From: Chthonomonas sp.
GTDB lineage: Bacteria > Armatimonadota > Fimbriimonadia > Fimbriimonadales > Fimbriimonadaceae
DNA length: 64,000 bases
Assembly (NCBI GenBank): GCA_016788585.1
Contig: JAEURP010000009.1
Location: 62,001-126,000, forward strand
Direction of reading: 5' to 3'
In this document: positions 1-37,199 of the stretch, piece by piece
How the letters are laid out: each line of letters begins with the position of its first letter
How positions within the stretch are numbered: the first letter of the stretch is position 1
Notes under the pieces: model-generated
Told to the model about the DNA's origin: nothing
Database searches by the model: none
What the model saw: only the letters and a program-made list of their open reading frames with translations
Program-made: the position numbers and the translations under genes

Positions 1-84
1 GTCTATGGCTAATAGCTGATAGCTGTTGGCTTAGGAACAATCATTCTCCATACGGCTATCGACCATCGACCAACAGCCATAGAC
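1..84. repeat. Inverted array of degenerate 7-base words (array A)
   Basis: The left arm reads as consecutive heptamers such as TATGGCT, AATAGCT, GATAGCT and GTTGGCT. The right arm, read on the minus strand, gives TATGGCT, GTTGGTC, GATGGTC and GATAGCC. Bases 1-10 and 75-84 are exact reverse complements, and 22-29 match 70-77 in a different register. It lies just downstream of tRNA-Lys and may continue beyond the window edge. Confidence 0.6.
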
Positions 85-90
85 CGAAAA

Positions 91-166
91 TGGTGAGACG
101 GCTGGGACTCGAACCCAGGACCCACGCCTTAAAAGGGCGATGCTCTACCGACTGAGCTACCGTCTC
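91..166 (-). tRNA. tRNA-Lys (anticodon TTT)
   Basis: On the minus strand a 7-bp acceptor stem GAGACGG/CCGTCTC closes a cloverleaf with D-arm GCTCAGTCGGTAGAGC, anticodon loop CTTTTAA (anticodon TTT) and a GGTTCGAGTCC T-arm. The 3' CCA is encoded. The anticodon stem has four clean pairs plus a T-T apposition at its base. It is divergent from purM. Confidence 0.95.
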
Positions 167-194
167 GAACTGACCGCAGGGTACCCCGCTCCGG

Positions 195-200
195 TATCCT
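195..200 (+). promoter_or_regulatory. -10 element of purM (leaderless type)
   Basis: TATCCT ends 6 bases before the ATG of purM, so the transcript would start at or next to the start codon. The only -35-like match is CTGACC at 170-175, a weak one. Confidence 0.55.
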
Positions 201-206
201 GACGCC

Positions 207-1244
207 ATGCCGGACCAGCCTTTGACCTATGCCTCGTCGGGTGTGGACATCGATTCCGCCCAGCGATCCATCCGGTCGCTTGAGAGTGCGATTAAGGCCA
301 CCTACGACGATCGCGTGCTGAGCAATGTCGGCGGATTTGGCGGGCTGTTCTCCGGTACGTTTGAGGGTCTCAACCGACCGATTCTTGTCAGTAGCATAGA
401 CGGTGTGGGCACCAAAACCAAAGTCGCGGCGATGATGGGCGACTTCCGCCACCTGGGCGCGGACATCGTCAACCACTGCATCAACGACATCCTCTGCCAA
501 GGCGCAAAGCCTCTGTTTTTCATGGATTATTTCGGCTGCTCGCAACTCTCTCCGACGGTTTTTGACCAAGTGGTTAGGGGCGCTGCCGAGGCTTGCGAAG
601 CCCAAGGATGCGCCTTGATCGGCGGCGAAACCGCCGAGATGCCTGGGGTTTATCTCGACGACGAGATTGATATTGTCGGCGCGATCGTCGGTGTTGTAGA
701 CGGCGACAAGAAGCTACCCAACGGCGCGTCGCGAGCAGGAGACAAGGTGATTGGCCTCGCCAGCGATGGTCTACACACGAACGGCTATTCGTTAGCCCGA
801 AAAGCTCTCTTCGAGAAGGGAGGCCTTAGTGTTCGCGATGAACTTGCCGAAGGTGTGACCATTGGTGAAGCGCTTCTCAAACCGCATCGTTGCTATGCGA
901 AAGCCGTTCACGCGGTGATGGAAGAGATGGGTGGTGTTCACGCCATTGCTCACATTACGGGCGGGGGGCTCTACGACAACATCCCGCGTGTTCTGCCCAG
1001 CGACCTTCAAGTCCTGCTCGACCGCCGCACCTTCACCCCACCCGAGCTTTTCCAGCTCATTCAGCGCACTGGCGAGGTGCCGGATTTCGAGATGTACCGC
1101 TCGTTCAACATGGGTATCGGCCTAGTACTGATCGCGGATAAAGACCTCGCGTCGGCAATCGTCACCCGTCTCGGCCAACTCGGTGAAAACGCCGCCATCA
1201 TTGGCGAACTACAAGACGGGCCGAATGATGTGCAAATCGTATAA
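207..1244 (+). CDS. purM: Phosphoribosylformylglycinamidine cyclo-ligase (AIR synthetase)
   Basis: Closes the imidazole ring in de novo purine synthesis, turning FGAM and ATP into AIR in the cytoplasm. The 345-residue length is normal for PurM. Visible family motifs are GGFGGLFSG near residue 42, the substrate/Mg loop SSIDGVGTKTKVA near 62, GADIVNHCINDIL near 84 and GGETAEMPGVY near 138. It stands alone, with no other pur gene in the window. The start is supported by a TATCCT hexamer 6 bases upstream and no Shine-Dalgarno sequence. It converges on the flgM-like gene, with repeat array B in the gap. Confidence 0.97.
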   Translation: MPDQPLTYASSGVDIDSAQRSIRSLESAIKATYDDRVLSNVGGFGGLFSGTFEGLNRPILVSSIDGVGTKTKVAAMMGDFRHLGADIVNHCINDILCQGAKPLFFMDYFGCSQLSPTVFDQVVRGAAEACEAQGCALIGGETAEMPGVYLDDEIDIVGAIVGVVDGDKKLPNGASRAGDKVIGLASDGLHTNGYSLARKALFEKGGLSVRDELAEGVTIGEALLKPHRCYAKAVHAVMEEMGGVHAIAHITGGGLYDNIPRVLPSDLQVLLDRRTFTPPELFQLIQRTGEVPDFEMYRSFNMGIGLVLIADKDLASAIVTRLGQLGENAAIIGELQDGPNDVQIV

Positions 1245-1245
1245 G

Positions 1246-1338
1246 GGTGCTGGGTGTGGTTGGGTATTGCGGGGAATAGCTGGGTGTCGCTGATTAATCC
1301 CAGCTAAACCAAGCCATCCCCAGCAACCCCCAGCTAAC
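1246..1338. repeat. Inverted array of degenerate decamers (array B)
   Basis: The left arm (to about 1291) can be cut into ten-base words ending in GGG, such as TGTGGTTGGG, TATTGCGGGG and AATAGCTGGG. The right arm read on the minus strand gives GGTTGCTGGG, GATGGCTTGG and TTTAGCTGGG. The arms meet at ATTAAT near 1291-1296. It fills the gap between the convergent purM and flgM-like genes and overlaps the last codon of the latter, so it could serve as a two-way terminator here, but it has no T-run. Confidence 0.6.
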
Positions 1339-1597
1339 TAACGCGATCGACAATCGCACGCCGAATCATCGCATCTGCGATCTCTTCGCCTGATGGATGC
1401 CAAATGCCGGCTTGCATTTGAGCTCGGATTTCGGCGACGCGGTCTTCGCGGTCGGGCATGGCAATGACATCAGCAGTGATCTGCTTAATCATTGGGCCGT
1501 CGGTTGGGAGGGGGCTGGGAGCAGATTCGTCAACGATCTGGCGCTCGCGAGTAGTCGAGCTCATGACCTTTTCGAGTTCAGTTTTGCTAATTTGCAT
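1334..1597 (-). CDS. flgM: FlgM-like anti-sigma-28 factor
   Basis: Expected to bind and hold the flagellar sigma factor (FliA/SigD) until the hook-basal body is complete. The 87-residue product is small and polar. Its C-terminal half, from DREDRVAEIRAQ at about residue 48 through HPSGEEIADAMIRRAI to the end, matches the sigma-binding helices of FlgM-family proteins; the N-terminal half is unstructured and Pro/Ser rich. The ATG follows AGAGGCG at a normal distance, so unlike many neighbours it has a leader. That leader carries a c-di-GMP riboswitch and a sigma-28-like promoter. No other flagellar regulator is adjacent; flagellin lies 34 kb away. The family call rests on pattern recognition. 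Confidence 0.72.
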   Translation of the reverse strand: MQISKTELEKVMSSTTRERQIVDESAPSPLPTDGPMIKQITADVIAMPDREDRVAEIRAQMQAGIWHPSGEEIADAMIRRAIVDRVS

Positions 1598-1600
1598 GGT

Positions 1601-1619
1601 GTCGCCTCTGATGTGCGAC
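1601..1619 (-). promoter_or_regulatory. Hairpin at the flgM ribosome binding site (candidate expression platform)
   Basis: On the minus strand GTCGC (1619-1615) pairs with GCGAC (1605-1601), and the AGAGG Shine-Dalgarno bases lie in the loop and stem top, a few bases before the ATG. Upstream GACGC bases in the 5' hairpin could compete for the GCGTC that overlaps this stem. This suggests translational control by the riboswitch; the switching scheme is inference. Confidence 0.4.
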
Positions 1620-1624
1620 GCCGC

Positions 1625-1705
1625 CTTCCATTAGGTAACCCGGCTGGCCCCTAGGGCTCCGTGGCTTTGCGTCCCACCGTCGCCGATGGTTTGCCATTAT
1701 CTTGG
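1625..1705 (-). ncRNA. Cyclic di-GMP-I riboswitch (GEMM-I)
   Basis: The minus strand shows the GEMM-I core in order: GGCAAACC (1695-1688), a hairpin, GGGACGCAAAGCC, a second stem region and AGCCGGGTTACC ending at 1634. The first G of GGCAAACC corresponds to the specificity position G20 of c-di-GMP aptamers; cGAMP-preferring variants have A there. It sits 37 bases upstream of the flgM-like start codon on the same strand. Confidence 0.9.
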
Positions 1706-1718
1706 ACGCTTGCGTCCA
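1703..1718 (-). promoter_or_regulatory. 5'-terminal hairpin of the flgM leader
   Basis: TGGACGC and GCGTCCA form a perfect 7-bp inverted repeat around a two-base centre, exactly where the transcript from the sigma-28-like promoter would begin. It may protect the 5' end or exchange pairing with the downstream GCGTC near the ribosome binding site. Confidence 0.45.
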
Positions 1719-1724
1719 CTTCTA

Positions 1725-1752
1725 ATAACGGCACATTCGCCGCGTTTCTTTA
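1725..1752 (-). promoter_or_regulatory. Sigma-28 (FliA/SigD)-like promoter of flgM
   Basis: Reading the minus strand, TAAAGAAA begins at 1752 and GCCGTTAT occupies 1732-1725, with 16 bases between TAAA and GCCG. The flagellar sigma consensus is TAAA, 14-16 bases, then GCCGATAA or GCCGATAT. The predicted start near 1718 leads straight into the 5' hairpin and the riboswitch. Confidence 0.6.
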
Positions 1753-1777
1753 GGGTGATTTTTGAGAAAGTTTGGAT

Positions 1778-1856
1778 GTCGGTCAAAGTCGGTGAGGTCA
1801 GTGAGTCGGTAGCGCTTTTAGCACAGACTTACCGACCTAACCGACTACCGACCCAC
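1778..1856. repeat. Inverted array of degenerate 8-9 base words (array C)
   Basis: The left arm (1778-1813) repeats GTCGGT-type words: GTCGGTCAAA, GTCGGTGAG, GTCAGTGA and GTCGGTAG. The right arm (about 1827-1854) read on the minus strand gives GTCGGTA, GTCGGTTAG, GTCGGTAA and GTCTGTGC. GTCGGTAG at 1805-1812 and its complement at 1845-1852 are exact. It lies between the end of the GH109 gene and the flgM promoter. Confidence 0.55.
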
Positions 1857-1862
1857 AATCCC

Positions 1863-3239
1863 CTAGTTATTCAAATTTACCGGCCTCATCTGAGCGAAAT
1901 GCCCCCGAGTGAAATCGGGAATGTCAATGCTCTGACTTCGATTTGCGACCGACCACTCGCTGAGTGGCGAAATGCAAGACCAAGACGCAGCGTCGTAAAC
2001 ATCCTGGTCCAATGGCAATCCATTGCGCAAGCAGTAGATGATTCGCCAGACCATGATGAAGTCCATGCCGCCATGGCCTCCGTGCGCTTTGGCTTCGACT
2101 TGGAGCTTCTTCCAAAGCGGATGGTCGTACTTCTGACGTAGTTTTGCCAAATCCTCGCCTTCCATCCATTCCTCTGGCCCATTCGGCACGCCGTCGCCCG
2201 TGTATCGAGCCGGGAAACCCGCCCAAACCCCGTTGGTTCCCTGAATCATGTTATGCCGCGTGTAGGGGCGGGGAAGTTGTTCATCCCACTGAATCATGAT
2301 TGTGCGACCCTGAAGCGTCTTCACGATAGTCGTATTGATGTCACCACACACGAACTTTAGCTTGCGCCTATCGTGCCCTTCGGGAAACTCCTGCTTGGCG
2401 TAAAGACCGCGCATCTTCGATGGCGAACTCACGCTACTGAGGTAATCCATTCGATCTCCTCGATTGATCCCCATATAGTGCGCGACCGGCCCAAGACCGT
2501 GGGTGGGATAGAGGTTGCCATTGCGCTTCGCGTATTCCAAAGTTCGCCACGATCCAGTGCCATGCTCGATCTCCTTCATCTGCCAGCGCAGGTCGTGGAT
2601 GTAAGCCGCCTCGCCGTGGAGCAGGTCGCCGAACAAGCCCCGTCGAACCATGTTCAAGACCATCAATTCCTCTTGCCCATAGTTCACGTTTTCCAGCATC
2701 ATGCAGTGCTTGCCTGTCCTCTCGGCGACCTCGACCAACTGCCAGCATCCATCAATCGTTACGGCTGCAGGAACCTCGATCAGCGCGTGGCACCCGGCTT
2801 CCATCGTGGCCACGGCCATAGGGACATGCCAATCCCAAGGCGTGCTGATGAACACGGCGTCGAGTTTGCACTCAGCAAGCATCCGCACGTAGTCCTTTTC
2901 GCCCTGTGTGTAGAGCCTGGCCGCGGGGCGCCCGGCTCTTGTCACCATCGCCTGGCCCTTTTCCGCGCTCGGCACATGGCTATCGCAAATCGCGACAATT
3001 TCAACGCTTTCGCAGTTCATTGCCGAAGCCAGATGGCTCGGCCCGCGCGCTCCCATGCCGATGAATGCGACTCGAACTGTGCCGAGAGGCTCTGTGTGGC
3101 GGTCATAGGCTGAGCCTGGCTTTGTCTTCAGCGACCGGTTGAGTCTCGGTTTTCCGGTTTGCGCATCAACTCCCGCGGCCAGCGCCAACCCTCCTAATGT
3201 AGCCAACCCAAGAACATCGCGACGAGACAAAGACGCCAT
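1863..3239 (-). CDS. Gfo/Idh/MocA family protein, GH109 alpha-N-acetylgalactosaminidase-like
   Basis: GH109 enzymes cleave terminal alpha-GalNAc with an enzyme-bound NAD. After a twin-arginine signal (SRRDVLGLATLGG, residues 5-17) comes a Rossmann start VRVAFIGMGARG near residue 55, then the motifs YPTHGLGPVAHYMGINRGDR and GHGGMDFIMVWRIIYCLRNG that mark GH109 rather than plain dehydrogenases. Length is 458 residues from this start. A longer upstream frame exists, but it would overlap the divergent gene and lacks the signal at its N terminus; TAGTAT 5 bases before this ATG also supports it. Export through Tat would place it outside the inner membrane. Substrate is not proven. Confidence 0.85.
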   Translation of the reverse strand: MASLSRRDVLGLATLGGLALAAGVDAQTGKPRLNRSLKTKPGSAYDRHTEPLGTVRVAFIGMGARGPSHLASAMNCESVEIVAICDSHVPSAEKGQAMVTRAGRPAARLYTQGEKDYVRMLAECKLDAVFISTPWDWHVPMAVATMEAGCHALIEVPAAVTIDGCWQLVEVAERTGKHCMMLENVNYGQEELMVLNMVRRGLFGDLLHGEAAYIHDLRWQMKEIEHGTGSWRTLEYAKRNGNLYPTHGLGPVAHYMGINRGDRMDYLSSVSSPSKMRGLYAKQEFPEGHDRRKLKFVCGDINTTIVKTLQGRTIMIQWDEQLPRPYTRHNMIQGTNGVWAGFPARYTGDGVPNGPEEWMEGEDLAKLRQKYDHPLWKKLQVEAKAHGGHGGMDFIMVWRIIYCLRNGLPLDQDVYDAASWSCISPLSEWSVANRSQSIDIPDFTRGHFAQMRPVNLNN

Positions 3240-3244
3240 AGCCG

Positions 3245-3250
3245 ATACTA
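3245..3250 (-). promoter_or_regulatory. -10 element of the GH109 gene (leaderless type)
   Basis: TAGTAT on the minus strand, 5 bases before the ATG at 3239. Confidence 0.5.
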
Positions 3251-3288
3251 CCCATGAACTGATGCAACCCAAAGGGCAATCAAACCGA

Positions 3289-3294
3289 TAAGAT
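3289..3294 (+). promoter_or_regulatory. -10 element of the gene at 3301 (leaderless type)
   Basis: TAAGAT, 6 bases before the ATG. Both promoters of this divergent pair fit into 61 bases. Confidence 0.5.
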
Positions 3295-3300
3295 AGCGTC

Positions 3301-3888
3301 ATGGCTTCACGTCTTTTGCTTTCAGTTCCTATCATCGTCGCCGCTGTTGGCTTGGGTGCTTTTGCCCAGAGCCAAAATGGCCCTCCCGATCCCGTAGCGC
3401 TCATGAACGCTCAGCGCGAGGCGATGAAGTCCCTCGACAAGATGCAGGGCACGTGGCGCGGCGATGCTTGGGCAATTTTGCCCGATGGCTCCAAGAAGGA
3501 AATGACTCAGACCGAGCGCTCCGGACCCATGCTCGATGGAACGGTCCGCGTCGTAGAGGGCCGGGGCTACACCAAGGAGGGCAAGGTAGAGTTCAATGCT
3601 CTCGCCGTCATCTCGTACTCACCGGCAACCAAGAAGTTCATGATGAAGAGCTTTGCCAATGGTCAAACCGGCGAGTTTGAGGTCAGGCCGACCGACACCG
3701 GCTTCACCTGGGAAATCCCCGCCGGCCCAATGATCATCCGCTACACGGCGACGATCACCAAGGATTCATGGCACGAGATAGGCGAACGCATCATGCCCGG
3801 CAAGGATCCGATCCGCATCGTCGAGCTCAACCTCAAGAAAATCGGCGACACCAACTGGCCCGCTGAAGGCTTCGTGAAGCAGAAGTAG
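3301..3888 (+). CDS. Secreted DUF1579-like protein
   Basis: A 195-residue exported protein of unknown function. Residues 1-23 form a signal peptide ending in AFA. The remainder is one beta-rich domain with GTWRGDAW near residue 50, conserved Gly and Thr strands and a SWHEIGER segment near 156, resembling the DUF1579 calycin-like fold. No catalytic motif is visible. It sits 22 bases before the deacylase gene in the same direction, but that gene has its own -10 element. Confidence 0.65.
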   Translation: MASRLLLSVPIIVAAVGLGAFAQSQNGPPDPVALMNAQREAMKSLDKMQGTWRGDAWAILPDGSKKEMTQTERSGPMLDGTVRVVEGRGYTKEGKVEFNALAVISYSPATKKFMMKSFANGQTGEFEVRPTDTGFTWEIPAGPMIIRYTATITKDSWHEIGERIMPGKDPIRIVELNLKKIGDTNWPAEGFVKQK

Positions 3889-3898
3889 GTTTCGACTG

Positions 3899-3904
3899 TA
3901 GAAT
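3899..3904 (+). promoter_or_regulatory. -10 element of the deacylase gene (leaderless type)
   Basis: TAGAAT, 6 bases before the GTG at 3911. Confidence 0.5.
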
Positions 3905-3910
3905 GAAGGC

Positions 3911-6444: not shown

Positions 6445-6450
6445 AGGAGC

Positions 6451-6456
6451 ATTATA
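6451..6456 (-). promoter_or_regulatory. -10 element of the PEP-CTERM gene (leaderless type)
   Basis: A perfect TATAAT on the minus strand, 6 bases before the ATG. Confidence 0.65.
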
Positions 6457-6497
6457 TGGGCAATGTCGCCAGAGTGATTACCAGGTTCGCTTTAGCG

Positions 6498-6509: not shown

Positions 6510-7670
6510 ATGCCTCGCTATCACCGACTAGGCGACCTTCCTGCCCAGCGACACATTCAGTTTCGCAAGCCCGACGGCACCCTTTATGCCGAGCAGCTTT
6601 TCAGCACGCATGGATTTAGCGGCCCGATGGCCCTGATGTATCACATCAACCTGCCGACCGAGGTGATGGGTTGGGAAGATATGGGGCACATTGCGCCGGA
6701 GTTCTTAACCGACGAGGCGCTGCGCCACCGGCACTTTATCACTGGTCGAATGACCCCCAAGGGCGATGCGATCAGTGGGCGCGTTCCGCTGATGGGCAAT
6801 GCTGATGTCATTTGGAACAACGCTTGGGTCGCGGAGCAAATGACCGACTTCTTCAAGAATGCCGAGGCCGACGAGATTCACTTCATTCACGACGGAAGTG
6901 GGGTTCTAGAAACGATGTTTGGCGAAGTGCCCTTCCGTCCGGGCGACTACCTGGTCATTCCGCGCGGCACGATTTGGCGCATCAAGTTCGATAAGCTCCC
7001 AGTGCGATGCCTCGTGTTTGAGAGCCATGGCGAAGTCACGATTCCGCGCCGGTACCGAAATGACTTAGGCCAGCTTCAAGAGCACGCGCCCTATCACGAG
7101 CGCGACTTCCGGCCGCCAACCTCGCTGCCAACCCAGGACGTGAAGGGCACGTATCACGTGGTCGTCAAGGCTCGCCAGAGGCTCACGAAGTACACCTACG
7201 GCTATCATCCGTTCGACATCGTGGGTTGGGATGGCTATGTGTATCCGTACGCGTTCAGCATTCATGACTTTGCGCCGATCACCGGCAAGCTGCACATGCC
7301 TCCGCCGATTCACCAGACATTCCAGGCGCCGGGATTTGTGGTCTGCTCGTTCTGCCCCAGGGTCCTCGACTTTCATCCTCAAGCGGTTCCCATTCCGTAC
7401 AACCATTCGAACGTGGACAGCGACGAAGTCTTGTATTACTGCAACGACAAGTTCGGCTCGCGCAAGGGCATCCAAGAAGGCTCGATCACTATGCACCCGC
7501 TCGGCATTCCGCACGGGCCACAGCCAGGCGCAGTCGAGGCATCTTTGGGTCACACGAAGACCGAGGAGCTTGCCGTGATGCTGGACACCCACCGGCCGTT
7601 GTTTATGACGAAGGAAGCACTCGCGATCGAAGATCCGGACTATTGGAAGAGCTGGCAACCAAGAAATTAG
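6510..7670 (+). CDS. hmgA: Homogentisate 1,2-dioxygenase
   Basis: Opens the ring of homogentisate to maleylacetoacetate in tyrosine and phenylalanine breakdown, using Fe(II). The 386-residue protein is a two-cupin enzyme shorter than the roughly 430-440 residues of animal and proteobacterial forms. Visible are the N-terminal MYHINLPTEV region, GDYLVIPRGTIWRIKF of the first cupin, and the C-terminal iron-site region with HSNVDSDEVLYYC and MHPLGIPHGPQPG. Partner genes (maleylacetoacetate isomerase, fumarylacetoacetase) are not adjacent. A related dioxygenase specificity cannot be excluded. Confidence 0.85.
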   Translation: MPRYHRLGDLPAQRHIQFRKPDGTLYAEQLFSTHGFSGPMALMYHINLPTEVMGWEDMGHIAPEFLTDEALRHRHFITGRMTPKGDAISGRVPLMGNADVIWNNAWVAEQMTDFFKNAEADEIHFIHDGSGVLETMFGEVPFRPGDYLVIPRGTIWRIKFDKLPVRCLVFESHGEVTIPRRYRNDLGQLQEHAPYHERDFRPPTSLPTQDVKGTYHVVVKARQRLTKYTYGYHPFDIVGWDGYVYPYAFSIHDFAPITGKLHMPPPIHQTFQAPGFVVCSFCPRVLDFHPQAVPIPYNHSNVDSDEVLYYCNDKFGSRKGIQEGSITMHPLGIPHGPQPGAVEASLGHTKTEELAVMLDTHRPLFMTKEALAIEDPDYWKSWQPRN

Positions 7671-7720
7671 TGTTCAGTTTTCGGTTGTCCTCCTAACCGA
7701 ACACAGAAAACCGAAAACTA
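7670..7720. repeat. Inverted word array with swapped word order (array D)
   Basis: AGTTTTCGGTT at 7676-7686 is exactly inverted at 7709-7719, and GTGTTC at 7670-7675 is inverted at 7699-7704. The two words occur in opposite order in the two arms, so both cannot pair in one simple hairpin. It starts at the last base of the preceding gene. Confidence 0.5.
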
Positions 7721-7750
7721 CCCGCTAACCCTTCCTTAACATTCGGTCTC

Positions 7751-26678: not shown

Positions 26679-29423
26679 ATGGACCTCAAAGCGACTCTGA
26701 ATTTGCCCGATCCGAACTTCACGATCCCGATGAAGGCGGACTTGGCGATTCGTGAGCCGGAAATTTTGGCTGAGTGGAAGGCATCGCAAATCTATCATCA
26801 GCTTCAGAAGGAGCGGAAGGATGCGCCGGCATTTGTGCTCCACGATGGGCCGCCGTACACGAACAGCGCGATCCACCTCGGCACGGCGATGAACAAGATC
26901 CTTAAGGATTTCGTGCTTAAGTCGCGACTGATGATGGGTTATCGCGTTCCGTACGTCCCCGGTTACGACAATCACGGCCTGCCGATCGAGCAGGCGGTGA
27001 TGAAGAAGTTTGCCGAGAAGAAGGAGAAGCCCGATCTGCCGACCTTACGGCAGGCTTGCCGCGACCACGCTGCAGAGTACATCAAGATTCAGACCGAGCA
27101 ATTCGAGCGGCTGGGCATCTTTGGGCTCTGGGAGAAGCCGTATCGCACGATGGATTTTCGGTTTGAGGCAGCGATCGTTCGGGTCTTCGGGAAGCTTGTG
27201 TCGCTGGGTCAGGTTTATCGTGGGCTGAAACCGGTCATGTGGAGCCCGACTAGTCGAACCGCTCTCGCTGACACCGAGATTGTTTACGAGGAGCACGTTT
27301 CCAAATCCATCTTCGTTCGATTCCCCTTGCTTGATGACCATAACGGCTGGAGCAAGGGACTGGAAAATGTCTACACGATCATCTGGACGACCACGCCGTG
27401 GACGATTCCAGCGAACTTGGGCGTGGCTTTTCATCCTGGGCTCGATTACGTGATCGCGAAGGTTGGCGGCGACCACTATGTGGTGCAGGAAGACCTCGCG
27501 CCATCGGTTTTTGAAAAGCTGGGTTTAAAGTACGAAGTTGTTCGGACATTGCTGGGTTCTTCTTTCGAGTTCTCTAAGTTCAAGCACCCGATCTACGAGC
27601 GAGAGTCACTCGGCGTTTTGGCGAACTACGTCACGACCGAAGACGGTACAGGGGTTGTGCATACGGCTCCGGGGCATGGCCGCGAGGACTTTATGACGGG
27701 TGCGAAGTACGGGTTGCCGGTTTTGTGTCCGGTAAATGAAGCGGGTGTTCTTACCGAAGAAGCGGCCGAGTTCGCCGGGGTTAAGTACACCGAATGCGAC
27801 ACGGTTGTAGTCAATCGTTTGCAAGGGTTGGGTGCTCTGCTCCATGTAGAGGACTATCATCACCAGTATCCACACGCCGAGCGCGATGGTAAGCCGGTGA
27901 TCTTTCGTGCGACCGAGCAGTGGTTTGTGAGCATGGAAGACAATGGCCTGCGCGCACAGATGCTCGACCAAATCGAGCAGGTGCAGTGGGTGCCGGAGTC
28001 GGGCTATGGTCGGATCAAGGGCATGATTGGCGGGCGACCTGATTGGTGCATCTCGCGGCAGCGGCCGTGGGGAGTTGGAATTCCGGTTTTCTATACGAGC
28101 TCGAGGATGCCGGTTCTAGATTCTGCTGCGATTGAGGCGGTTGCCCAATTGATTGAGCGGGAGGGCTCTGATGCCTGGTACACGAAGTCGCCAGCCGAGA
28201 TTTTGCCATCTGGCTACAGCTTCAATGGCGAGACCGAGTTTACGAAGGAAACCGATGTCTTCGACGTTTGGTTTGACAGCGGCTCGACCAATATCGCGGT
28301 TTTGGGTGGCGATGTGTATCCAGAGTGGAAGGAGGCGTTACCCGCCGATTTGTACTTAGAAGGATCGGATCAGCATCGCGGTTGGTTCAACGTTTCGATG
28401 GTGATCGGCACGGCTGCGAATGGGGCCGCCCCGTATAAGGCGGTCGTGACGCACGGCTTTGTGACCGACGAGCAGGGGCGCAAGATGAGCAAGCGGCTCG
28501 GCAATGTGATTGATCCGAACGAGGTTTGCGCTTCGCTGGGTGCGGACGTCTTGCGCTACTGGTGCGCGAGCGTGAACTACGCCGACGATGTGCCGTGCGG
28601 TCAAGACCTTCTTAAGGTGAGCGGCGAAGGCTACCGGACGATTCGAAATACGCTGCGATTCTTGCTGGGCAATCTCTATGACTATGACTTGGTCGTGCCA
28701 ACCGAGATTCTCGAGATCGATCAGTGGATCATCGAGCAAGCCGAGCTCTTGGTTGCCGAGGTGAATGAGAATTATCGCGATTACGAATTCAAAAAGGCGC
28801 TGAGTGCGATCAATGACTTCTGCATCAAGCAGCTTTCGGCGTTCTATTTGGATGCGATCAAGGATCGGATGTACTGCGATGGAGCGAAGTGGCACACGCG
28901 GCGAAGCGGGCAGCATGCGTGCCACGTCGTTTTGGGTCACTTGCTGACGTGCGTCGCGCCGATTTTGCCTTTCACGGCAGAAGAGACTTACGCTCGATTT
29001 CCCGGCGCGAAGTTGGCTTCGATTTTCTCAGAGGTCATGTCCGTGCCGAGTACTCAGCGGCTCGCCGAAATCGAGGCGGGGCCGTTGCAAGTTCGGTACG
29101 CTCGACTTTTGGAGATTCGCGGCGAGGTGTTTGCGCGGTTCGAGGAGTGGAAGAGGGAGAACGAGGCGAAGAATGGGCAAGCCGTGGTGGCGCACATTCG
29201 CGAGGACGCGGATACGGTTGAGTTCCTTAAGAGCTTCGGGCAGGACGAACTGGCAAATCTCTTCAAATTTAGTTGGGTTGAGATCGCTGAGGACCCGAGC
29301 GCGGTTGATTTCACGGCTTCAACTTATCTGCAGTGCGAGCGTAGCAAGCTCTATCGGCCAGACGTTGAAGAAGTGCAGGGCATGAAGCTATCGCAGCGTG
29401 ATCGGCGCGCGGTGGGGATTTAG
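26679..29423 (+). CDS. ileS: Isoleucyl-tRNA synthetase
   Basis: Charges tRNA-Ile, with an editing domain against valine. The class I signatures are DGPPYTNSAIHLGTAMN near residue 55 (HLGT in place of HIGH) and RKMSKRLGN near 605; the editing domain has GTGVVHTAPGHG. Length is 914 residues from this start. The frame extends 30 codons further up, but that part is repeat array F, not protein. The C-terminal zinc knuckle is degenerate: CERS near 890 and LSQRD replace the usual CxxC pairs, leaving one cysteine. lspA follows after two bases, a pairing also seen in Proteobacteria. Confidence 0.96.
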   Translation: MDLKATLNLPDPNFTIPMKADLAIREPEILAEWKASQIYHQLQKERKDAPAFVLHDGPPYTNSAIHLGTAMNKILKDFVLKSRLMMGYRVPYVPGYDNHGLPIEQAVMKKFAEKKEKPDLPTLRQACRDHAAEYIKIQTEQFERLGIFGLWEKPYRTMDFRFEAAIVRVFGKLVSLGQVYRGLKPVMWSPTSRTALADTEIVYEEHVSKSIFVRFPLLDDHNGWSKGLENVYTIIWTTTPWTIPANLGVAFHPGLDYVIAKVGGDHYVVQEDLAPSVFEKLGLKYEVVRTLLGSSFEFSKFKHPIYERESLGVLANYVTTEDGTGVVHTAPGHGREDFMTGAKYGLPVLCPVNEAGVLTEEAAEFAGVKYTECDTVVVNRLQGLGALLHVEDYHHQYPHAERDGKPVIFRATEQWFVSMEDNGLRAQMLDQIEQVQWVPESGYGRIKGMIGGRPDWCISRQRPWGVGIPVFYTSSRMPVLDSAAIEAVAQLIEREGSDAWYTKSPAEILPSGYSFNGETEFTKETDVFDVWFDSGSTNIAVLGGDVYPEWKEALPADLYLEGSDQHRGWFNVSMVIGTAANGAAPYKAVVTHGFVTDEQGRKMSKRLGNVIDPNEVCASLGADVLRYWCASVNYADDVPCGQDLLKVSGEGYRTIRNTLRFLLGNLYDYDLVVPTEILEIDQWIIEQAELLVAEVNENYRDYEFKKALSAINDFCIKQLSAFYLDAIKDRMYCDGAKWHTRRSGQHACHVVLGHLLTCVAPILPFTAEETYARFPGAKLASIFSEVMSVPSTQRLAEIEAGPLQVRYARLLEIRGEVFARFEEWKRENEAKNGQAVVAHIREDADTVEFLKSFGQDELANLFKFSWVEIAEDPSAVDFTASTYLQCERSKLYRPDVEEVQGMKLSQRDRRAVGI

Positions 29424-32109: not shown

Positions 32110-32118
32110 GGATCAGTC

Positions 32119-32958
32119 ATGGAAACCCTAGAAGTTCAAGTTAAGAGTGCGGATGAAGCAGCTGAAGCCGCGGCGAAGCAACTCGGCGTCACCGTCAAAG
32201 ACATCAAGGTGAAGGTCGTCGAGGAATCGGCTGGCCTGTTTGGCAAGAAGAAGCTGAAGCTCCAAATCGAGCGCGTCGAAGCGAAGGCCGCGAAGCCCAA
32301 AGCAACTAAAGCGAAGGCCGTGAAGGAGGAAGCTTCTGAGGTTGAGGTTGAGGAAGAGAAGCCCGCGAAGCCAGCCCGCGCCGCAAAGGCCGCAAAGCCC
32401 GCGAAGGAAGAAAAGCCTGCTGCGAAGCCAGCCGCCAAGGGCCGATCGAAGAAGGAAGAATCTCCTGCCGAAGATGGCGAGAAAGAAGAATCTGATGTCG
32501 TTGCGACTAAGAAGGATGGCGAAGCCTTCGTTAAGATGATCGAAGAAGTCTTGGAAGTCGCTGGGCTCGAAGTGAACGTGAAGGTCAGCGAAATCCAGGG
32601 CCGCTACGTGAATATCCAACTGGACGGAAACGATGCTTCGCACCTTGTCGGAAAGTCTGGCGAAGTCCTCAACTCGTTTCAATACATCATGAATTTGATG
32701 GCGGCGAACAAGTTCAACAATGGTGTGCGCATCACCCTGGACGGTAATGACTATCGCCGACGCCGCGAGGAAGTTCTTCGCGATTTGGCAACCAACGTGG
32801 CCGCTGAAGTTTTGAAGCGAGGCGAAGAAGCTGTATTCGATGCTCTTCCTGCTTTTGAGCGACGAATCGTCCATAAGGTCCTCGCCGAAATGGATGGCAT
32901 TCAAACTTACTCGGAAGGTGAAGAGCCCAACCGACACGTCGTGGTTGCACCAGCCTAA
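32119..32958 (+). CDS. jag: RNA-binding protein Jag/KhpB (SpoIIIJ-associated)
   Basis: An RNA-binding regulator that follows yidC in many bacteria. Its 279 residues have a Jag_N domain (1-50, GLFGKKKLKLQI), a long Lys/Ala/Glu-rich linker (about 55-130), a KH domain (about 135-205, GRYVNIQLDG and HLVGKSGEVLNSFQYIMNL) and an R3H domain with NDYRRRREEVLRDLA. The linker is longer than usual. AAGGATCAG precedes the ATG. One base separates it from ldcA. Confidence 0.95.
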   Translation: METLEVQVKSADEAAEAAAKQLGVTVKDIKVKVVEESAGLFGKKKLKLQIERVEAKAAKPKATKAKAVKEEASEVEVEEEKPAKPARAAKAAKPAKEEKPAAKPAAKGRSKKEESPAEDGEKEESDVVATKKDGEAFVKMIEEVLEVAGLEVNVKVSEIQGRYVNIQLDGNDASHLVGKSGEVLNSFQYIMNLMAANKFNNGVRITLDGNDYRRRREEVLRDLATNVAAEVLKRGEEAVFDALPAFERRIVHKVLAEMDGIQTYSEGEEPNRHVVVAPA

Positions 32959-32959
32959 C

Positions 32960-33883
32960 GTGACGATCCGACCGCGTGCGCTCAAACCGGGTGATACGCT
33001 CGGAATCGTGTCGCCTTCGAGCCCAATCAAGCCAGACCTTCTCGAAAAGGGTCTGGCTTTGTTGCATTCGCGGGAATTTAAGACGAAAGTCTTTCCCCAT
33101 GCTCTCGATCACACACACATGCTCGCGGGTCTCGACAAGGATCGGGCGGCCGACCTTATGGAGGCATTTCAGGATCCAGAAGTTGACGCGGTGTACTGCA
33201 GTCGAGGGGGTTACGGTTGTGCGCGCCTCCTCCCTTATCTAGATTTCGATCTCATGGCGGCGAGTCGAAAGATGCTGATCGGCTTCAGCGACATCACCAC
33301 GCTGCATCTCGCGCTACAAAAGCGCGACACGGTGAGCATACATGCTCCGATGGCACTGACACTTGCCTACGACCGCGAGCCTTGGGTGATTGAGTCATTC
33401 TTTCGTGTGATTCAAGGCGACGGTGTAGTTCCTGAAGGGGCAACAGAAGGGGAGGCGATCGTTCCTGGCGTGGCTGAAGGCACGCTGATCGGTGGTTGCA
33501 TGTGCCTTCTCTGCGACAGCATCGGCGCACCGAACGAGCTCGACACCAAGGATCGAATCTTGATCATCGAAGATGTAGATGAGAGTCCGCACCGGGTTGA
33601 CGCGATGCTTACCCACTTACTCAATTGCGGAAAGCTACAGGAAGCGGCGGGCATTGTGATCGGCGAAATGACACGCACTGATGACAAGTGCGACGAATCG
33701 ATTGGCGATCAGCCGTGGCGAGAGATCGTCCGCGAACGTCTCTTAAAGGTAGGAGTTCCGAGCATGTTGAACTACCCCTTTGGGCACATGTCGACCATGT
33801 TAACGATCCCCCTTGGTGTTCGCGCAAGAATGGATGCCAGTTTAGGTACGGTGGAACTGCTCGAGCCCATATGCGCACCTTAG
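32960..33883 (+). CDS. ldcA: LD-carboxypeptidase (peptidase S66)
   Basis: Removes the terminal D-Ala from tetrapeptide stems in peptidoglycan recycling, normally in the cytoplasm; no signal peptide is visible. The 307 residues show the S66 features VYCSRGGYGCARLLPYLDF near 77, the nucleophile in LIGFSDITTLHLAL near 107, ILIIEDVDESPHRVD with the catalytic glutamate near 200, and the His in FGHMSTML near 278. The GTG start lies one base after the jag stop. Confidence 0.92.
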   Translation: MTIRPRALKPGDTLGIVSPSSPIKPDLLEKGLALLHSREFKTKVFPHALDHTHMLAGLDKDRAADLMEAFQDPEVDAVYCSRGGYGCARLLPYLDFDLMAASRKMLIGFSDITTLHLALQKRDTVSIHAPMALTLAYDREPWVIESFFRVIQGDGVVPEGATEGEAIVPGVAEGTLIGGCMCLLCDSIGAPNELDTKDRILIIEDVDESPHRVDAMLTHLLNCGKLQEAAGIVIGEMTRTDDKCDESIGDQPWREIVRERLLKVGVPSMLNYPFGHMSTMLTIPLGVRARMDASLGTVELLEPICAP

Positions 33884-35280
33884 CTCTACTTTTTCTCGTT
33901 CCCGCCATCGCAACGGCCCAAGTCATCTCTTGGGAGAAACCTATCGCTCCAGGCTTGACCTATCGGATGGAAGTTGATTCAGAGTTTCCTCGGGTGATCC
34001 ATGCATTGCGTTGGTCCCAAGGGGCACCGCAAGTGACCGCACGGAGTGAAGTCGCTCAAATGAGGCTGTTTGCCGATGCAGGCTCCGATGCCCGAGAAGG
34101 AATTTCGTCGCTTCTCGAAAGGAGTGGCGCAATCGCAGGGATCAATGGGGACTTCTTTCCAACTAGCGGCGACCCCTTGAACGCGGTTGTCCGCGATGGC
34201 CTACTTCTGAGTCGTCCTTATCCGGGCCGGGCGTGCTTTGGGTGGGGGTCGGCGACCAGTGCCGCTGGCCTTCTGGAGTGGTCTGGCTCCGCGGACATCT
34301 CGAGCATTGGGATGGAGGCAATCGTTGGGCTTAATGAAGATGTGCAGCCGAACCGCTTAGTTCTTTTCACCGACTCCAGCGCAGAGGCTCGAGCACCTAC
34401 CCCCAATGTAGTCGTGGTGTTCAAAATCGAAGGAGGCGGCTTTGCTCCAACGGGAACAGTCAATGGCAAGGTGACGGAAGTCTTTCGGAACCGGGATTCC
34501 GTTAAGATCCCTCAGGGTCATGCCATCTTGGTCAAATCGGGAGAGGACCTCGTGAAAATGGGTGTTGTCATGCGAAATGACGAAGTGACCGTCAAGATGA
34601 AGACGACGGGAATGGACTGGAGCAAGATCGACAACGTTATTGGCGGTGGGCCCATGCTGCTTCGCGGCGGCAATGTTGCTATCGACACTCTGGCTGCTGG
34701 CTTCAGCAAGACCTTTGCTGATACCCGCCACCCGCGAACCGCAATCGGCCGGACTGGAAAGGGCGATATCTGGTTCGTAACCGTAGATGGGCGGCAACCC
34801 ATGAGCAATGGGGCGAGTTTGGAAGAGCTTGCGGCTATCATGCAGGCCCGGGGGTGCACGGATGCCACAAACCTCGATGGTGGCGGTAGTACGACGTTGG
34901 CGATCTTCGGGCAGGTGATGAACCGTCCAAGCGACGGCGTAGAGCGAAAGGTTGCGAATGGCGTACTCTTCTTTGGGCCAAAACCGACCAATTCGCTTCC
35001 GCAAGTGGTGATTCAGGGCCCGGCTGTAATTGAGCCTGGGTCTGTTGGGAGCTACTGGCTAGTTGGATCCGATGGAAGAGTGCTTCCTAATCTGGGGGTG
35101 CTTTGGACGGCCACAGGCCCCGGTGGTTGGATTGATCAAGGCGGCACATTGCGACCACTGGACGTGGGCGGGCAGGTCACCCTGAGAGCCTTCACAAAGG
35201 GAATCACGAGCTCGTTAACGGTGAACGTTACGCCAAAGCCGGCTCCCAAGTTGGAGCCCAAACCCAAGCCAAAAAATTAG
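33871..35280 (+). CDS. Secreted phosphodiester glycosidase (NAGPA domain) protein
   Basis: Members of this family remove GlcNAc from phosphodiester-linked glycans. The protein has 469 residues: a signal peptide at 1-16 (ATA-Q), then the NAGPA domain to about residue 365, with GINGDFF near 90, VIGGGPMLLRGG and the hallmark DATNLDGGGSTTLAI near 330. A C-terminal Ig-like or cadherin-like strand region follows, and the end is Pro/Lys-rich. The ATG overlaps the end of ldcA by 13 bases, so the two are probably translated together. The terminator of flagellin lies across its stop codon. Confidence 0.85.
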   Translation: MRTLALLFLVPAIATAQVISWEKPIAPGLTYRMEVDSEFPRVIHALRWSQGAPQVTARSEVAQMRLFADAGSDAREGISSLLERSGAIAGINGDFFPTSGDPLNAVVRDGLLLSRPYPGRACFGWGSATSAAGLLEWSGSADISSIGMEAIVGLNEDVQPNRLVLFTDSSAEARAPTPNVVVVFKIEGGGFAPTGTVNGKVTEVFRNRDSVKIPQGHAILVKSGEDLVKMGVVMRNDEVTVKMKTTGMDWSKIDNVIGGGPMLLRGGNVAIDTLAAGFSKTFADTRHPRTAIGRTGKGDIWFVTVDGRQPMSNGASLEELAAIMQARGCTDATNLDGGGSTTLAIFGQVMNRPSDGVERKVANGVLFFGPKPTNSLPQVVIQGPAVIEPGSVGSYWLVGSDGRVLPNLGVLWTATGPGGWIDQGGTLRPLDVGGQVTLRAFTKGITSSLTVNVTPKPAPKLEPKPKPKN

Positions 35281-35298
35281 GGCCCGACCACGAGGGCC
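35271..35298 (-). terminator. Rho-independent terminator of the flagellin transcript
   Basis: On the minus strand GGCCC (35298-35294) pairs with GGGCC (35285-35281), followed by CTAA and six T residues (35276-35271). It ends the flagellin mRNA about 110 bases after its stop, and overlaps the 3' end of the opposing glycosidase gene. Confidence 0.7.
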
Positions 35299-35410
35299 GG
35301 GCTGTCTGGCGCGTAACGAACTTTGCGGTAAAGAATGCGTTTCTTTGTTTTGGCGGCAAAGATCACATTTCGTTTGTCGTTTCCGGTTAGTTCGCTGAGT
35401 GCGCCAAGTC

Positions 35411-36856
35411 TTACTGTTGCAGGAGCGAAAGCACCGCTTGAGGAGCGAGATTCGCTTGCGAAAGCATTGAGAGACCAGATCGCTGGAGAATTTGCAACTT
35501 TGTAAAGTTGGTCATTTCCGTTGCGACGTCGATGTCTCGAATGCTAGATTCGCTGCTGGCCAAGTTCTCGCGTTGGATAGCAAGTGACCTAACATTGGAC
35601 TCCAGGACGTTTCGCATGAAGTTGCCGACGCGGCCACGTGCCGTGCTGACATCCTGTATGGCCTTGTCAACAATCTGCATCGCTTCGGCGCAGCCGGAGG
35701 CGCTCAGCAGATCTAGGTCGGCAAGGGACTTTCCACTTACAACTCCCTTTCCAATCTCGCTTGCGGCGAAGTTTCCGAGGGAGAGGCTTGTGGTTTCACC
35801 TGCATTGCCGCCGATTTGGAACGTCGCGTTGCCCGCAGTAATCTGACCCCAAGTGCCAGGAGCGGCCGCTAAGTTGCCATTTTCCGTGAGGTTGATGGCG
35901 TTGCCGTAATTGTCCCGAAGGCCAAGTCCGCGACCAGCGTTGAACGAGACCGTAGTAACTCCACCAGCCGTCGCACCGTTGAGGTCAATCGTGACATCTG
36001 CAACTGCATCAACGCCCGAGTCGGTCGTCGATCCAGCAGCATTTTGAAGGATTCCTGCAGCGTCGACGAGGCTCACCGTTGCTTGCGAACCGAATTCCGC
36101 GCTGTTGAGAGTGACGGCTCCGCCAGCTGCCCAAGTTGCGGTAACACCCGTTTGAACCGAAGCCTGATTAATTCGAGCAACAACCGACTCGATCGTATCG
36201 CTACTGGTCGTATTGAAGCTGACACCATTGATTGTGAACGTACCAGCGGCGACAGTAGTCGCGGCGGTGGCATGGGTCTTGGTCGTGACGACCTGAGCTC
36301 GTTCGGCTGGGGTGGTCACATCAACCACAACGGTTGAGTTCTGAGTGACCGCTTGTCCAGCGAAAATGCCTGAGAAGCTCATGTCAGTGACATTGGCGGC
36401 ACTCGTGCTGATCGCTTGGGTTCCAGAGCTGCCGTCGAGCAACTTCTTGGTACCAAAAGCGGTCGATTGAGCGATGCGGGTGATCGACTGAATGATGGAG
36501 GAGATTTGGTTCTGATTGGCCTGGCGCTGAGCTTCGTCGAGAGTGCCCGAGTTGCTACTGGCTACGGCCAAAGTTCGTGCATCACGCAGAAGGCGATTGA
36601 CTTCTTCGAGGGCAGCTTCAGCCGTCTTCGAGTAGTTCGACGCATCCTGATTGTTGCGGATAGCCTGGTCGAGACCGGAGATCTGAGCCCGGAATGACTC
36701 AGAAACAATGAGCCCAGCTGGGTCGTCGCCTGCGTTGTTGATTCGCAAGCCGGTCGAGAGTTTGGTCATGCTGCTTGCGAATTGCTGGCCCGTGTTGGAC
36801 AAAATTCGCAAGGAGGTCATGGCGAGAGTGTTCGTGTTTACGCTAAATGCAGACAT
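35411..36856 (-). CDS. fliC: Flagellin
   Basis: The filament subunit exported through the flagellar apparatus. Its 481 residues keep the conserved N-terminal D0/D1 helices (from about 10: LRILSNTGQQFASSMTKLSTG then LRINNAGDDPAGL) and the C-terminal pair (NVRSLAIQRENLASSESSIRDID, ending LAPQAVLSLLQQ). The variable middle (about 165-380) is Thr/Ala/Gly-rich with a FlaN/IN-like segment FTINGVSFNTTSSDTIESVV. AAGGAAG precedes the ATG. The leader holds a compact three-stem structure. No hook, cap or chaperone genes are adjacent. Confidence 0.96.
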   Translation of the reverse strand: MSAFSVNTNTLAMTSLRILSNTGQQFASSMTKLSTGLRINNAGDDPAGLIVSESFRAQISGLDQAIRNNQDASNYSKTAEAALEEVNRLLRDARTLAVASSNSGTLDEAQRQANQNQISSIIQSITRIAQSTAFGTKKLLDGSSGTQAISTSAANVTDMSFSGIFAGQAVTQNSTVVVDVTTPAERAQVVTTKTHATAATTVAAGTFTINGVSFNTTSSDTIESVVARINQASVQTGVTATWAAGGAVTLNSAEFGSQATVSLVDAAGILQNAAGSTTDSGVDAVADVTIDLNGATAGGVTTVSFNAGRGLGLRDNYGNAINLTENGNLAAAPGTWGQITAGNATFQIGGNAGETTSLSLGNFAASEIGKGVVSGKSLADLDLLSASGCAEAMQIVDKAIQDVSTARGRVGNFMRNVLESNVRSLAIQRENLASSESSIRDIDVATEMTNFTKLQILQRSGLSMLSQANLAPQAVLSLLQQ

Positions 36857-36872
36857 GGTTTTCTTCCTTGAT

Positions 36873-36921
36873 GCGACCCCGCCATCCGTGGCATGCGGGC
36901 ATTTTTACGGGCCCTGGTCGC
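36873..36921 (-). ncRNA. Structured leader of flagellin mRNA (candidate three-way junction)
   Basis: On the minus strand GCGACC (36921-36916) pairs with GGTCGC (36878-36873). Enclosed are two short hairpins: GGGC/GCCC with the loop CCGTAAAAAT, and GCCA/TGGC with the loop CGGA. The structure ends about 16 bases before the flagellin ATG. It matches no riboswitch class I know. Confidence 0.4.
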
Positions 36922-36949
36922 GTCCACAAGGTTGATTCCAGGTATGGGT

Positions 36950-36982
36950 ACTAGGATTAACCTAGTATTAATACTTGTATTA
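36950..36982. promoter_or_regulatory. Nested AT-rich palindromes, candidate operator of the flagellin region
   Basis: Three overlapping inverted repeats: ACTAGG and CCTAGT around ATTAA (36950-36966), the perfect 12-mer AGTATTAATACT (36964-36975) and TAATAC/GTATTA around TT (36969-36982). The block is far more AT-rich than its surroundings and lies about 95-125 bases before the flagellin start. Confidence 0.5.
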
Positions 36983-36998
36983 ACGCATTTGTACGGGG

Positions 36999-37199
36999 AT
37001 TGGGAAATGCTGGTAGGAATTGGAGGGGCTGGACGGTAGCGGGAGCTTGCTGGACATGGCTGGAAATAGAGGGACAATGGCTAGGCATGGAAGGGAGTAG
37101 CGCATTGGAATCACAGATTTAGATGTCAGTAAGTCAAGTGAGCCCGCTACCGTGCGCAGTCTGAAGCAATGTCCCTCGATGTCCAGCCATGTCCCGCCA
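36999..37199. repeat. Inverted array of degenerate decamers (array G)
   Basis: The left arm (36999-37103) has words such as TTGCTGGACA, TGGCTGGAAA, TGGCTAGGCA and TGGAAGGGAG. The right arm (37144-37199) read on the minus strand gives TGGCTGGACA, TCGAGGGACA and, further in, TAGCGG. About 40 bases of unrelated sequence separate the arms. With the palindromes and leader it accounts for the 396-base divergent gap; I see no gene in it. Confidence 0.6.

What the first reader, a model, noticed from the sequence alone, without database searches (positions are those of the whole stretch)
1..37199. Seven intergenic quasi-palindromes built from head-to-tail arrays of degenerate 7-10 base words
Regions A (1-84), B (1246-1338), C (1778-1856), D (7670-7720), E (22564-22688), F (26510-26658) and G (36999-37199) share one architecture but not one sequence. 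One arm is a run of near-repeats of a short word, and the other arm is a run of the inverted word, in shifted register. Word length differs by locus: about 7 in A, 8-9 in C and D, 9-10 in E, 10 in B, F and G. They occur between convergent, divergent and co-directional genes, so they are not simply terminators. Because the words repeat, the arms can pair in many registers. I know of no named element with this build.
Basis: seen in the sequence. Interest (0 to 1): 0.75.

Follow-up and report, generated by a model that had tools for sequence, protein, structure and literature searches.

The report
Inverted short-word arrays between genes
Between genes of this uncultured Armatimonadota bacterium lie many imperfect DNA palindromes built from short repeated words, and in the genomes with enough of them to test the G-rich strand tends to point inward from the gene edge, a pattern that is partly known and unexplained.

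Summary
All seven loci are quasi-palindromes beyond arm-composition shuffles. Words are 7 nt in A and D (D marginal) and 10 nt in B, E, F and G; C has no significant period. The build recurs in the genome: 38 word arrays in 67.5 kb of spacer against 1.3 per shuffle.

That no such element is known is wrong. Intergenic heptamer arrays with inverted pairs in "convergent orientation" are published for Xanthomonas, and a heptamer-repeat hairpin with replaceable word class for the Nostoc trnL intron. Not found in my paper searches: the decamer form, several vocabularies in one genome, and a pooled test of orientation. In four genomes the G-rich strand reads inward from the gene edge at stops (41:11) and starts (43:9); opposite-sign array pairs are G-first 20:1; array-free spacers show no bias (own genome 80:84). 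At some loci the word changed between sister species while the array stayed.

Mechanism is not settled. Best guess: arrays lengthened by slippage and matched by template switching, tolerated in spacers. Weak base-pair covariation, lack of U-tracts and separate REP-like hairpins disfavour RNA-gene, terminator and REP readings.

The parts
1..84 (.). Element A: 7-nt words (GCTATGG/GCTAATA type); arms 1-36 and 47-84; continues about 10 nt left of the window; 3' of tRNA-Lys (91-166, minus)
   Evidence: the colinear spacer is 13 bp in G004 and 11 bp in G001 against 109 and 108 bp here
1246..1338 (.). Element B: 10-nt words (GCTGGGTATT type); arms 1249-1284 and 1299-1334; fills the spacer between convergent genes
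   Evidence: an 80% similar stretch in G001 contig C127, where no purM match was reported
1774..1861 (.). Element C: palindrome with GTCGGT-like words, no significant period; arms 1774-1810 and 1823-1861; 1 bp from the stop of the gene at 1863-3404 (minus)
7667..7728 (.). Element D: 7-nt words (AGTTTTC/GGTTTTC type); arms 7667-7689 and 7706-7728; overlaps the stop of the gene ending at 7670
   Evidence: colinear spacers of G001 and G004 lack it
22564..22700 (.). Element E: 10-nt words (GTTCGGGTTG type); arms 22565-22610 and 22651-22699; between tRNA-Tyr (22467-22552) and the next gene
   Evidence: at the same place G001 and G004 carry arrays of GCTGGGTATT-like words instead
26503..26662 (.). 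Element F: 10-nt words (TTGCTGGACA/TGGAGGGACA type); arms 26532-26593 and 26603-26662; upstream of ileS (ATG at 26680 by comparison with relatives)
36995..37222 (.). Element G: 10-nt words (TGGCTGGACA type), order-mirrored arms 37028-37079 and 37167-37220; divergent spacer
   Evidence: shorter, partly re-worded versions in two G001 contigs

Best explanation
These are convergent pairs of degenerate short-word tandem arrays, the same general kind as the intergenic heptamer arrays of cyanobacteria and Xanthomonas, here in a 7-nt and a 10-nt form. SHOWN: typically one G-rich array reads into the spacer from the left gene edge and an inverted counterpart of the same vocabulary reads in from the right, together making a G-first quasi-palindrome that could fold on either strand in several registers; between sister species loci are present or absent, differ in length, or carry other words. 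INFERRED: arrays start from a small hairpin or word and lengthen by replication slippage; template switching between the arms, the known quasi-palindrome correction, keeps both arms in one vocabulary; purifying selection confines them to spacers. A mild role as a transcript-end hairpin acting in both directions may help to keep them at gene edges, but they do not look like base-by-base selected RNA genes.
For: Arrays are far above shuffles, with periods 7 (18), 10 (17) and 9 (3). Word-sized length differences between orthologous elements: C18:58049 has a 3' arm one 7-nt word longer than in G004 between fixed anchors (37 against 30 nt); C7:14415 is 32 nt longer, about three words. Of 12 own-genome elements whose spacer is colinear in G001 or G004, four keep the words, four are re-worded or changed, four are absent. 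Arms share words but mostly not word order, as expected if each arm lengthens on its own from a common seed. Weak covariation, 1 double change giving a Watson-Crick pair against 14 Watson-Crick pairs broken among 122 pairs compared, argues against base-pair-level selection. Polarity: opposite-sign adjacent pairs G-first 20 of 21; single arrays with the G-strand 5' end nearer the gene edge 45 of 58. Quasi-palindrome template switching is an established process (PMC7202029, PMC3820800; search listing and start of abstract only).
Against: Slippage alone gives no reason for the G-first polarity, and a test for one-ended growth (regularity of the 3' against the 5' half of 99 arrays) was null, 42 to 35. 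Several loci share a vocabulary without near-identical copies (best whole-element match 75%), so how words reach new loci is unexplained. In two changed sister loci the arms do not pair better than shuffles (C2:68774 in G004, 181 of 200 shuffles reach it; G in G001 contig C62, 103 of 200), and E in G004 is marginal (25 of 200), so arm matching is not always kept. The 32-nt difference at C7 is not an exact multiple of the word.
Confidence: 0.45

Rival explanations
1. Functional RNA or transcription-boundary hairpins: the elements are selected because a transcript entering the spacer from either side makes a stem with a G/U-rich 5' arm, which stops or protects it.
For: They abut gene ends (57 of 104 arrays in four genomes lie within 10 bp of a gene edge, 39 of them at stops); folding energy beats half-shuffles (at most 1 of 200 reach it) at A, B, C, F and G, less so at D (5) and E (14); intrinsic-terminator-like sites follow only 41 of 721 own genes against 20 of 128 in G002, where no array was seen in 156 kb sampled.
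Against: No U-tract follows the stems except D on one strand; elements also sit upstream of divergent genes (7 of 19 by the script, really 6 because E follows a tRNA); sister species G001 and G004, which share some elements, have still fewer terminator-like sites (3 of 130 and 4 of 182); weak covariation; the orientation rule holds at start edges (43:9) as at stop edges (41:11).
Confidence: 0.25
2. Mobile hairpin element: a single-strand transposase or another enzyme inserts and replaces these hairpins, and the fixed G-first polarity is its recognition polarity.
For: Presence or absence at colinear sites in sisters (A, D, C16a:7229, C11:78009); change of vocabulary at fixed loci; a B-like stretch elsewhere in G001; Y1 transposase genes were found in own, G001 and G004 but not in G002, where no array was seen in the 156 kb sampled.
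Against: No near-identical copies; variable length and word; the two own Y1 transposase genes are flanked by REP-like hairpins of another sequence; no target duplication was noticed by eye; G004 has more Y1 hits (6) than own (2) but few arrays in its sampled stretches.
Confidence: 0.12
3. G-quadruplex or R-loop elements: the G-rich arm is what matters, as proposed for GGGAATC arrays.
For: G-first rule; oligonucleotides of the related heptamers fold into G4 (PMC4692102, discussion read); the own 10-nt words carry GG.
Against: Arrays that obey the rule in other genomes lack G runs (GTGACGA, GAGTTGA); the rule does not follow the direction of the gene.
Confidence: 0.08
4. Chance or composition artefact of GT-rich spacers.
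For: Arms are compositionally skewed, which by itself raises complementarity.
Against: Half-shuffle controls; 38 arrays against 1.3; array-free spacers show no polarity.
Confidence: 0.02

Closest known systems
GGGAATC / GGGGA(C/T)T intergenic heptamer arrays of Xanthomonas and Nostoc (PMC4692102; sections 10, 13, 16 and passages read)
   Same: Intergenic tandem short words; 70 and 75 inverted pairs in 'convergent orientation' in two Xanthomonas genomes (which I read as G-first); arrays almost exclusively nearer to the 5' neighbouring ORF irrespective of ORF orientation; length and sequence variation between two species
   Different: One main 7-nt word family per genome there; here 7- and 10-nt words, several vocabularies per genome, strongly degenerate; few inverted pairs were reported in Nostoc
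Degenerate heptanucleotide hairpin P6b of the Nostoc trnL intron, Class I TDNGATT / Class II NNTGAGT (PMC4476775 and PMC3488679, passages)
   Same: Stem built from degenerate repeats of one word; copy number changes; replacement of one word class by another at a fixed place
   Different: Inside a transcribed group I intron; heptamers only
STRR heptamers of cyanobacteria and TAACTGA arrays of Beggiatoaceae, Cyanobacteria and Bacteroidetes (PMC4679880 abstract, passages and section 10; PMC2408588 passages; the name STRR for the heptamers is recalled)
   Same: Intergenic head-to-tail heptamers scattered over unrelated phyla, mechanism unknown
   Different: In the Guaymas genome 169 direct sets and one inverted case, mostly upstream of start codons
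REP / BIME / REPIN elements with RAYT (Y1) transposases (PMC3116915, PMC2817692: search listing and start of abstract only)
   Same: Intergenic imperfect palindromes, many per genome
   Different: Defined sequence families linked to a transposase (partly recalled); REP-like hairpins exist in this genome as well and differ from the arrays

Membership tests
Intergenic short-word (heptamer/STRR-like) tandem arrays | Tandem copies of a 6-10 nt word beyond chance in non-coding DNA | tested here: met
   38 arrays in 67.5 kb non-coding, 1.3 per shuffle; arrays inside genes were not counted
Intergenic short-word (heptamer/STRR-like) tandem arrays | Unit of 7 nt | tested here: inconclusive
   18 arrays of period 7, 17 of period 10, 3 of period 9: met for A and D, not for B, E, F, G
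Convergent G-first pairs as in Xanthomonas | Inverted pair with G-rich strands pointing at each other | tested here: met
   20 of 21 opposite-sign adjacent pairs in four genomes (3 more pairs had the same sign); own genome 7 of 7
Convergent G-first pairs as in Xanthomonas | Word GGGAATC | tested here: not met
   Own words GCTGGGTATT, TGGCTGGACA, GTTAGGATTT, GCTAATG, AGTTTTC
Intrinsic (Rho-independent) terminator | Short GC stem followed by a U-tract | tested here: not met
   Of 19 elements and both strands (38 flanks of 12 nt) only D on the minus strand has 5 T in 7
REP / BIME | Conserved sequence family with a RAYT-linked copy | tested here: not met
   Vocabularies differ; hairpins beside the two own Y1 transposase genes are of another sequence
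MITE | Near-identical copies with terminal inverted repeats and target duplication | tested here: not met
   Best whole-element identity among 21 own loci 75%; duplications were looked for by eye only
Structured non-coding RNA or cis-regulatory RNA | Covarying base pairs or an Rfam match | tested here: not met
   No Rfam family at A-G at gathering threshold; 1 compensatory double change against 14 broken pairs of 122, on only five pairs of sequences

The most novel reading that the evidence does not exclude
Across unrelated bacterial phyla an unrecognised strand-asymmetric process writes short-word arrays at the edges of genes, mostly laying the G-rich strand from the gene edge into the spacer whatever the gene's direction; where both edges are written, a G-first quasi-palindrome results, and the word can be exchanged for another while the site is kept. 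The rule would be the fingerprint of one shared activity, for example 3'-end word addition with fold-back copying or a single-strand hairpin insertion.
Probability: 0.2. Interest if true: 0.85.

Novelty: new variant of a known kind. Interest (0 to 1): 0.6.

Why it matters
Heptamer arrays have been noted piecemeal (cyanobacteria, Xanthomonas, Beggiatoaceae) without a settled mechanism. A decamer form, several vocabularies in one genome, re-wording at fixed sites and an orientation rule that ignores gene direction but respects the gene edge give constraints that a mechanism has to meet, and all can be tested on public genomes.

Tried and rejected
Considered and set aside: intrinsic terminators; REP/RAYT (own Y1 genes have other hairpins); MITE (no near-identical copies); an Rfam RNA; a reverse-transcriptase-based writer (one RT domain in own and one in G002, none found in G001 or G004: no link to array content); G-quadruplex as the general cause; plain composition.

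Results against or not helping: periodicity of C not significant; one-ended growth test null; word order mirrored in only 5 of 17 own elements and 2 of 20 elsewhere at 0.01 or below, so whole-arm fold-back copying is not general; the divergent context is not depleted. Polarity of periodic hairpins was not significant in the mixed set of 79 purM loci (7:2, n=9) or in the other family members (3:1, n=5). Periodic hairpins called coding were also G-first in G041 (5:0) and G044 (6:3), perhaps spacers miscalled as genes; own coding 4:2, purM coding 5:7. In the own genome alone single arrays are near even (12:9), array spacers 15:5 and all arrays inward 24, outward 12. Array-free spacers of G042 lean the other way (10:25). 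Few arrays were found in the sampled stretches of G004 (1) and G001 (4, one of them a 6-nt repeat), although 8 of 12 own elements with colinear spacers have counterparts there, so I claim no density difference between sisters. Not assessable for turnover: B, C, F, C11:35127, C16b:89654 (flanks not colinear), C4:28379 (no hit), C18:41258 (only G002 colinear, element absent); C18:47663 and C2:38048 were not queried. Genes were called by a script of mine (hexamer score), not a standard caller; E is counted as divergent because tRNAs were left out there. 'Single' arrays include arms whose partner fell below the threshold.

Paper searches for prior art; 7 of 10 allowed, open-licence papers only.
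Full report
WHERE IT IS. The window lies in a 2.38-Mb, 27-contig genome. By its purM protein the nearest named relative found is a Fimbriimonadaceae (Armatimonadota) metagenome bin, SJ800, 88% identical (records very near the own genome may have been left out there). SJ800 is taken to be genome G004, since both have a contig of 11,767 bases carrying the match. G001 is another congener; ileS is 85% identical in both and 71% in G002.

THE OBSERVATION. The seven regions are real quasi-palindromes. In a scan of the window's 36 spacers of at least 40 bp, five score 14 or more where shuffles give 0.45. In the stricter control, each half is shuffled separately so that the GT-rich/CA-rich asymmetry stays; 7, 1, 0, 0, 1, 0 and 0 of 500 shuffles reach the observed hairpin at A-G. 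Both halves share one period: 7 in A and D, 10 in B, E, F and G; D is marginal and C shows none.

GENOME-WIDE. In 785 kb of this genome (about a third) I found 38 non-trivial tandem arrays of period 6-11 in 67.5 kb of non-coding DNA, against 1.3 per dinucleotide shuffle; 18 have period 7, 17 period 10 and 3 period 9. By my reading of the list about twenty form clear quasi-palindromes. They use a few vocabularies: GCTGGGTATT, TGGCTGGACA/TGGAGGGACA, GTTAGGATTT/GTTCGGGTTG (10 nt); GCTAATG, AGTTTTC/GGTGTTC, GGGGTGT (7 nt). In the first two vocabularies the word varies at set places: in 68 words collected on a G..GG anchor, out-of-register ones included, the two bases before the GG are mostly CT (24) or AG (16). 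Several elements fill 99-100% of their spacer (B, C16a:7229, C2:32550, C18:41258, C4:28379).

ARMS. Permuting whole words of one arm leaves pairing as good as observed in most elements; 5 of 17 own elements (G, C16a:7229, C18:41258, C4:28379, C2:68774) and 2 of 20 elsewhere are order-specific at 0.01 or below.

SISTER SPECIES. Twelve elements have colinear flanks in G001 or G004. Four keep the same words (C7:14415, C18:58049, C18:67855, C2:32558), with length differences of about three words (32 nt) in the first and one 7-nt word in the second. Four are changed at the same place: E and C16b:76216 carry other words, C2:68774 carries another heptamer array whose arms do not pair beyond shuffles, and G is shorter and partly re-worded in two G001 contigs, one of which has no detectable array. 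Four are absent (A, D, C16a:7229, C11:78009). Locus E is the clearest case: GTTCGG-type words here, GCTGGGTATT-type words in both sisters, between the same tRNA-Tyr and the same gene, though the E hairpin of G004 is marginal (25 of 200 half-shuffles reach it; 8 of 200 in G001). At C16b:76216 the 10-nt words of this genome correspond to GTCGGTA/GTCTGTA-type words in G004, with a hairpin that 0 of 200 half-shuffles reach. Base by base, 122 pairs compared across five orthologous element pairs show 14 Watson-Crick pairs broken, 9 turned to G-U, and one double change that gives a Watson-Crick pair. G002, same genus but more distant, has no array in 15.3 kb of non-coding DNA sampled.

POLARITY. The arms are not interchangeable. 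Among hairpins with a significant shared period in non-coding DNA, the 5' arm is G-rich rather than C-rich in 17:1 (own genome; n=18), 9:1 plus 3 neutral (G041, an Armatimonadota genome), 5:0 (G042, another Armatimonadota genome), 13:1 (G044, a Latescibacterota genome). A mixed set of 79 loci gives 7:2 and the other family members 3:1, not significant alone. The G041, G042 and G044 stretches were chosen because they hold heptamers, not for polarity. Since a palindrome reads the same on both strands, G-first is a property of the element, not of a chosen strand. Adjacent arrays of opposite sign in one spacer are G-first in 20 of 21, with 3 further same-sign pairs; single arrays lie with the 5' end of their G-rich strand nearer the gene edge in 45 of 58 (p = 3e-5; own genome alone only 12:9). 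The rule holds at stop edges (41:11) and start edges (43:9), so it does not depend on gene direction; per genome, inward against outward, it is 24:12 (own), 24:3 (G041), 12:2 (G042), 24:3 (G044), both arms of pairs counted. Spacers of 40-400 bp without arrays or strong hairpins show no such asymmetry (own 80:84; eight sets summed 194:211, G042 leaning the other way at 10:25), while array spacers in the four genomes with at least four of them give 52:10. The same geometry can be read in the Xanthomonas paper: inverted pairs in "convergent orientation", and repeats almost exclusively nearer to the 5' neighbouring ORF irrespective of ORF orientation (PMC4692102, sections 10 and 13).

WHAT IT IS. 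By kind, these are intergenic degenerate short-word arrays, of which heptamer arrays in cyanobacteria, Xanthomonas and Beggiatoaceae are the published cases. The Nostoc trnL P6b stem, made of degenerate heptamers and exchanged between two word classes, is a published parallel to the re-wording seen at E and 76216. The 10-nt form and the number of vocabularies in one genome did not turn up in searches, which cover open-licence papers only.

HOW IT MIGHT WORK. Step 1 (inferred): a word or small hairpin at a gene edge lengthens by slippage. Step 2 (inferred): template switching between arms keeps a common vocabulary. Step 3 (inferred): selection keeps arrays out of genes. Shown are word-sized length differences, shared vocabulary mostly without shared order, presence or absence, and re-wording. 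Not explained are the polarity, which slippage does not predict, and the sharing of words between loci. A growth-gradient test was null. A transcript-boundary role is possible: many arrays abut stops (35 inward and 4 outward within 10 bp), and this genome has fewer terminator-like sites than G002 (41/721 against 20/128); but the sisters have fewer still and the rule holds at start edges too.

WHAT IT IS NOT. No U-tracts except D on one strand; no Rfam match at A-G; no near-identical copies (best 75%). REP-like hairpins of fixed sequence exist here and flank a Y1 transposase gene (L256 3148-3209 and 3846-3914 around the gene 3268-3813), with a related hairpin in L258; the hairpin at the start of contig C8 is identical to the one at the end of contig C6 and may be the same copy seen twice at contig ends. 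They have no words in common with the arrays by eye. Rho is encoded.

VERDICT. A true and unusual-looking observation that belongs to a known but poorly explained kind, in a new variant, with an orientation rule that deserves a genome-scale test.

Noticed in passing
window 1630-1704 (minus): A c-di-GMP-I-GGC riboswitch match (62 bits, threshold 59) lies between element C and the small gene at 1334-1597, upstream of that gene.
   Followed up: no
L256 3148-3209 and 3846-3914; contig C8 38-106; L258 1620-1687: REP-like hairpins with the core CACTGGTG...CACCAGTG flank a Y1 (RAYT-like) transposase gene; a related hairpin lies in L258. The C8 copy is identical to the one at the end of C6 and may be an assembly overlap.
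   Followed up: partly
L257 2215-2294 and 3047-3188: A second Y1 transposase gene (2448-2996) is flanked by another REP-like family (TTCGTGCCATGGGTGG).
   Followed up: partly
L281 5880-6053, L280 13357-13468, L282 2743-2929 and 11071-11266: In the Latescibacterota genome G044 the loops of inverted heptamer arrays hold other hairpin-like sequences (GTCATTCCCGCG..., GTCATTCTGAGCG... and similar), as if arrays bracket them.
   Followed up: no
L227 15938-16308 (G001): Two long imperfect inverted repeats with GGGTCG- and CTTCGGACT-like units, of a different build from the arrays.
   Followed up: no
G002 stretches L193, L194, L196, L197: G002 has ordinary intrinsic terminators (A-rich 5' flank, GC stem, T-run) after 20 of 128 genes, against 41 of 721 in the window's genome.
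   Followed up: partly
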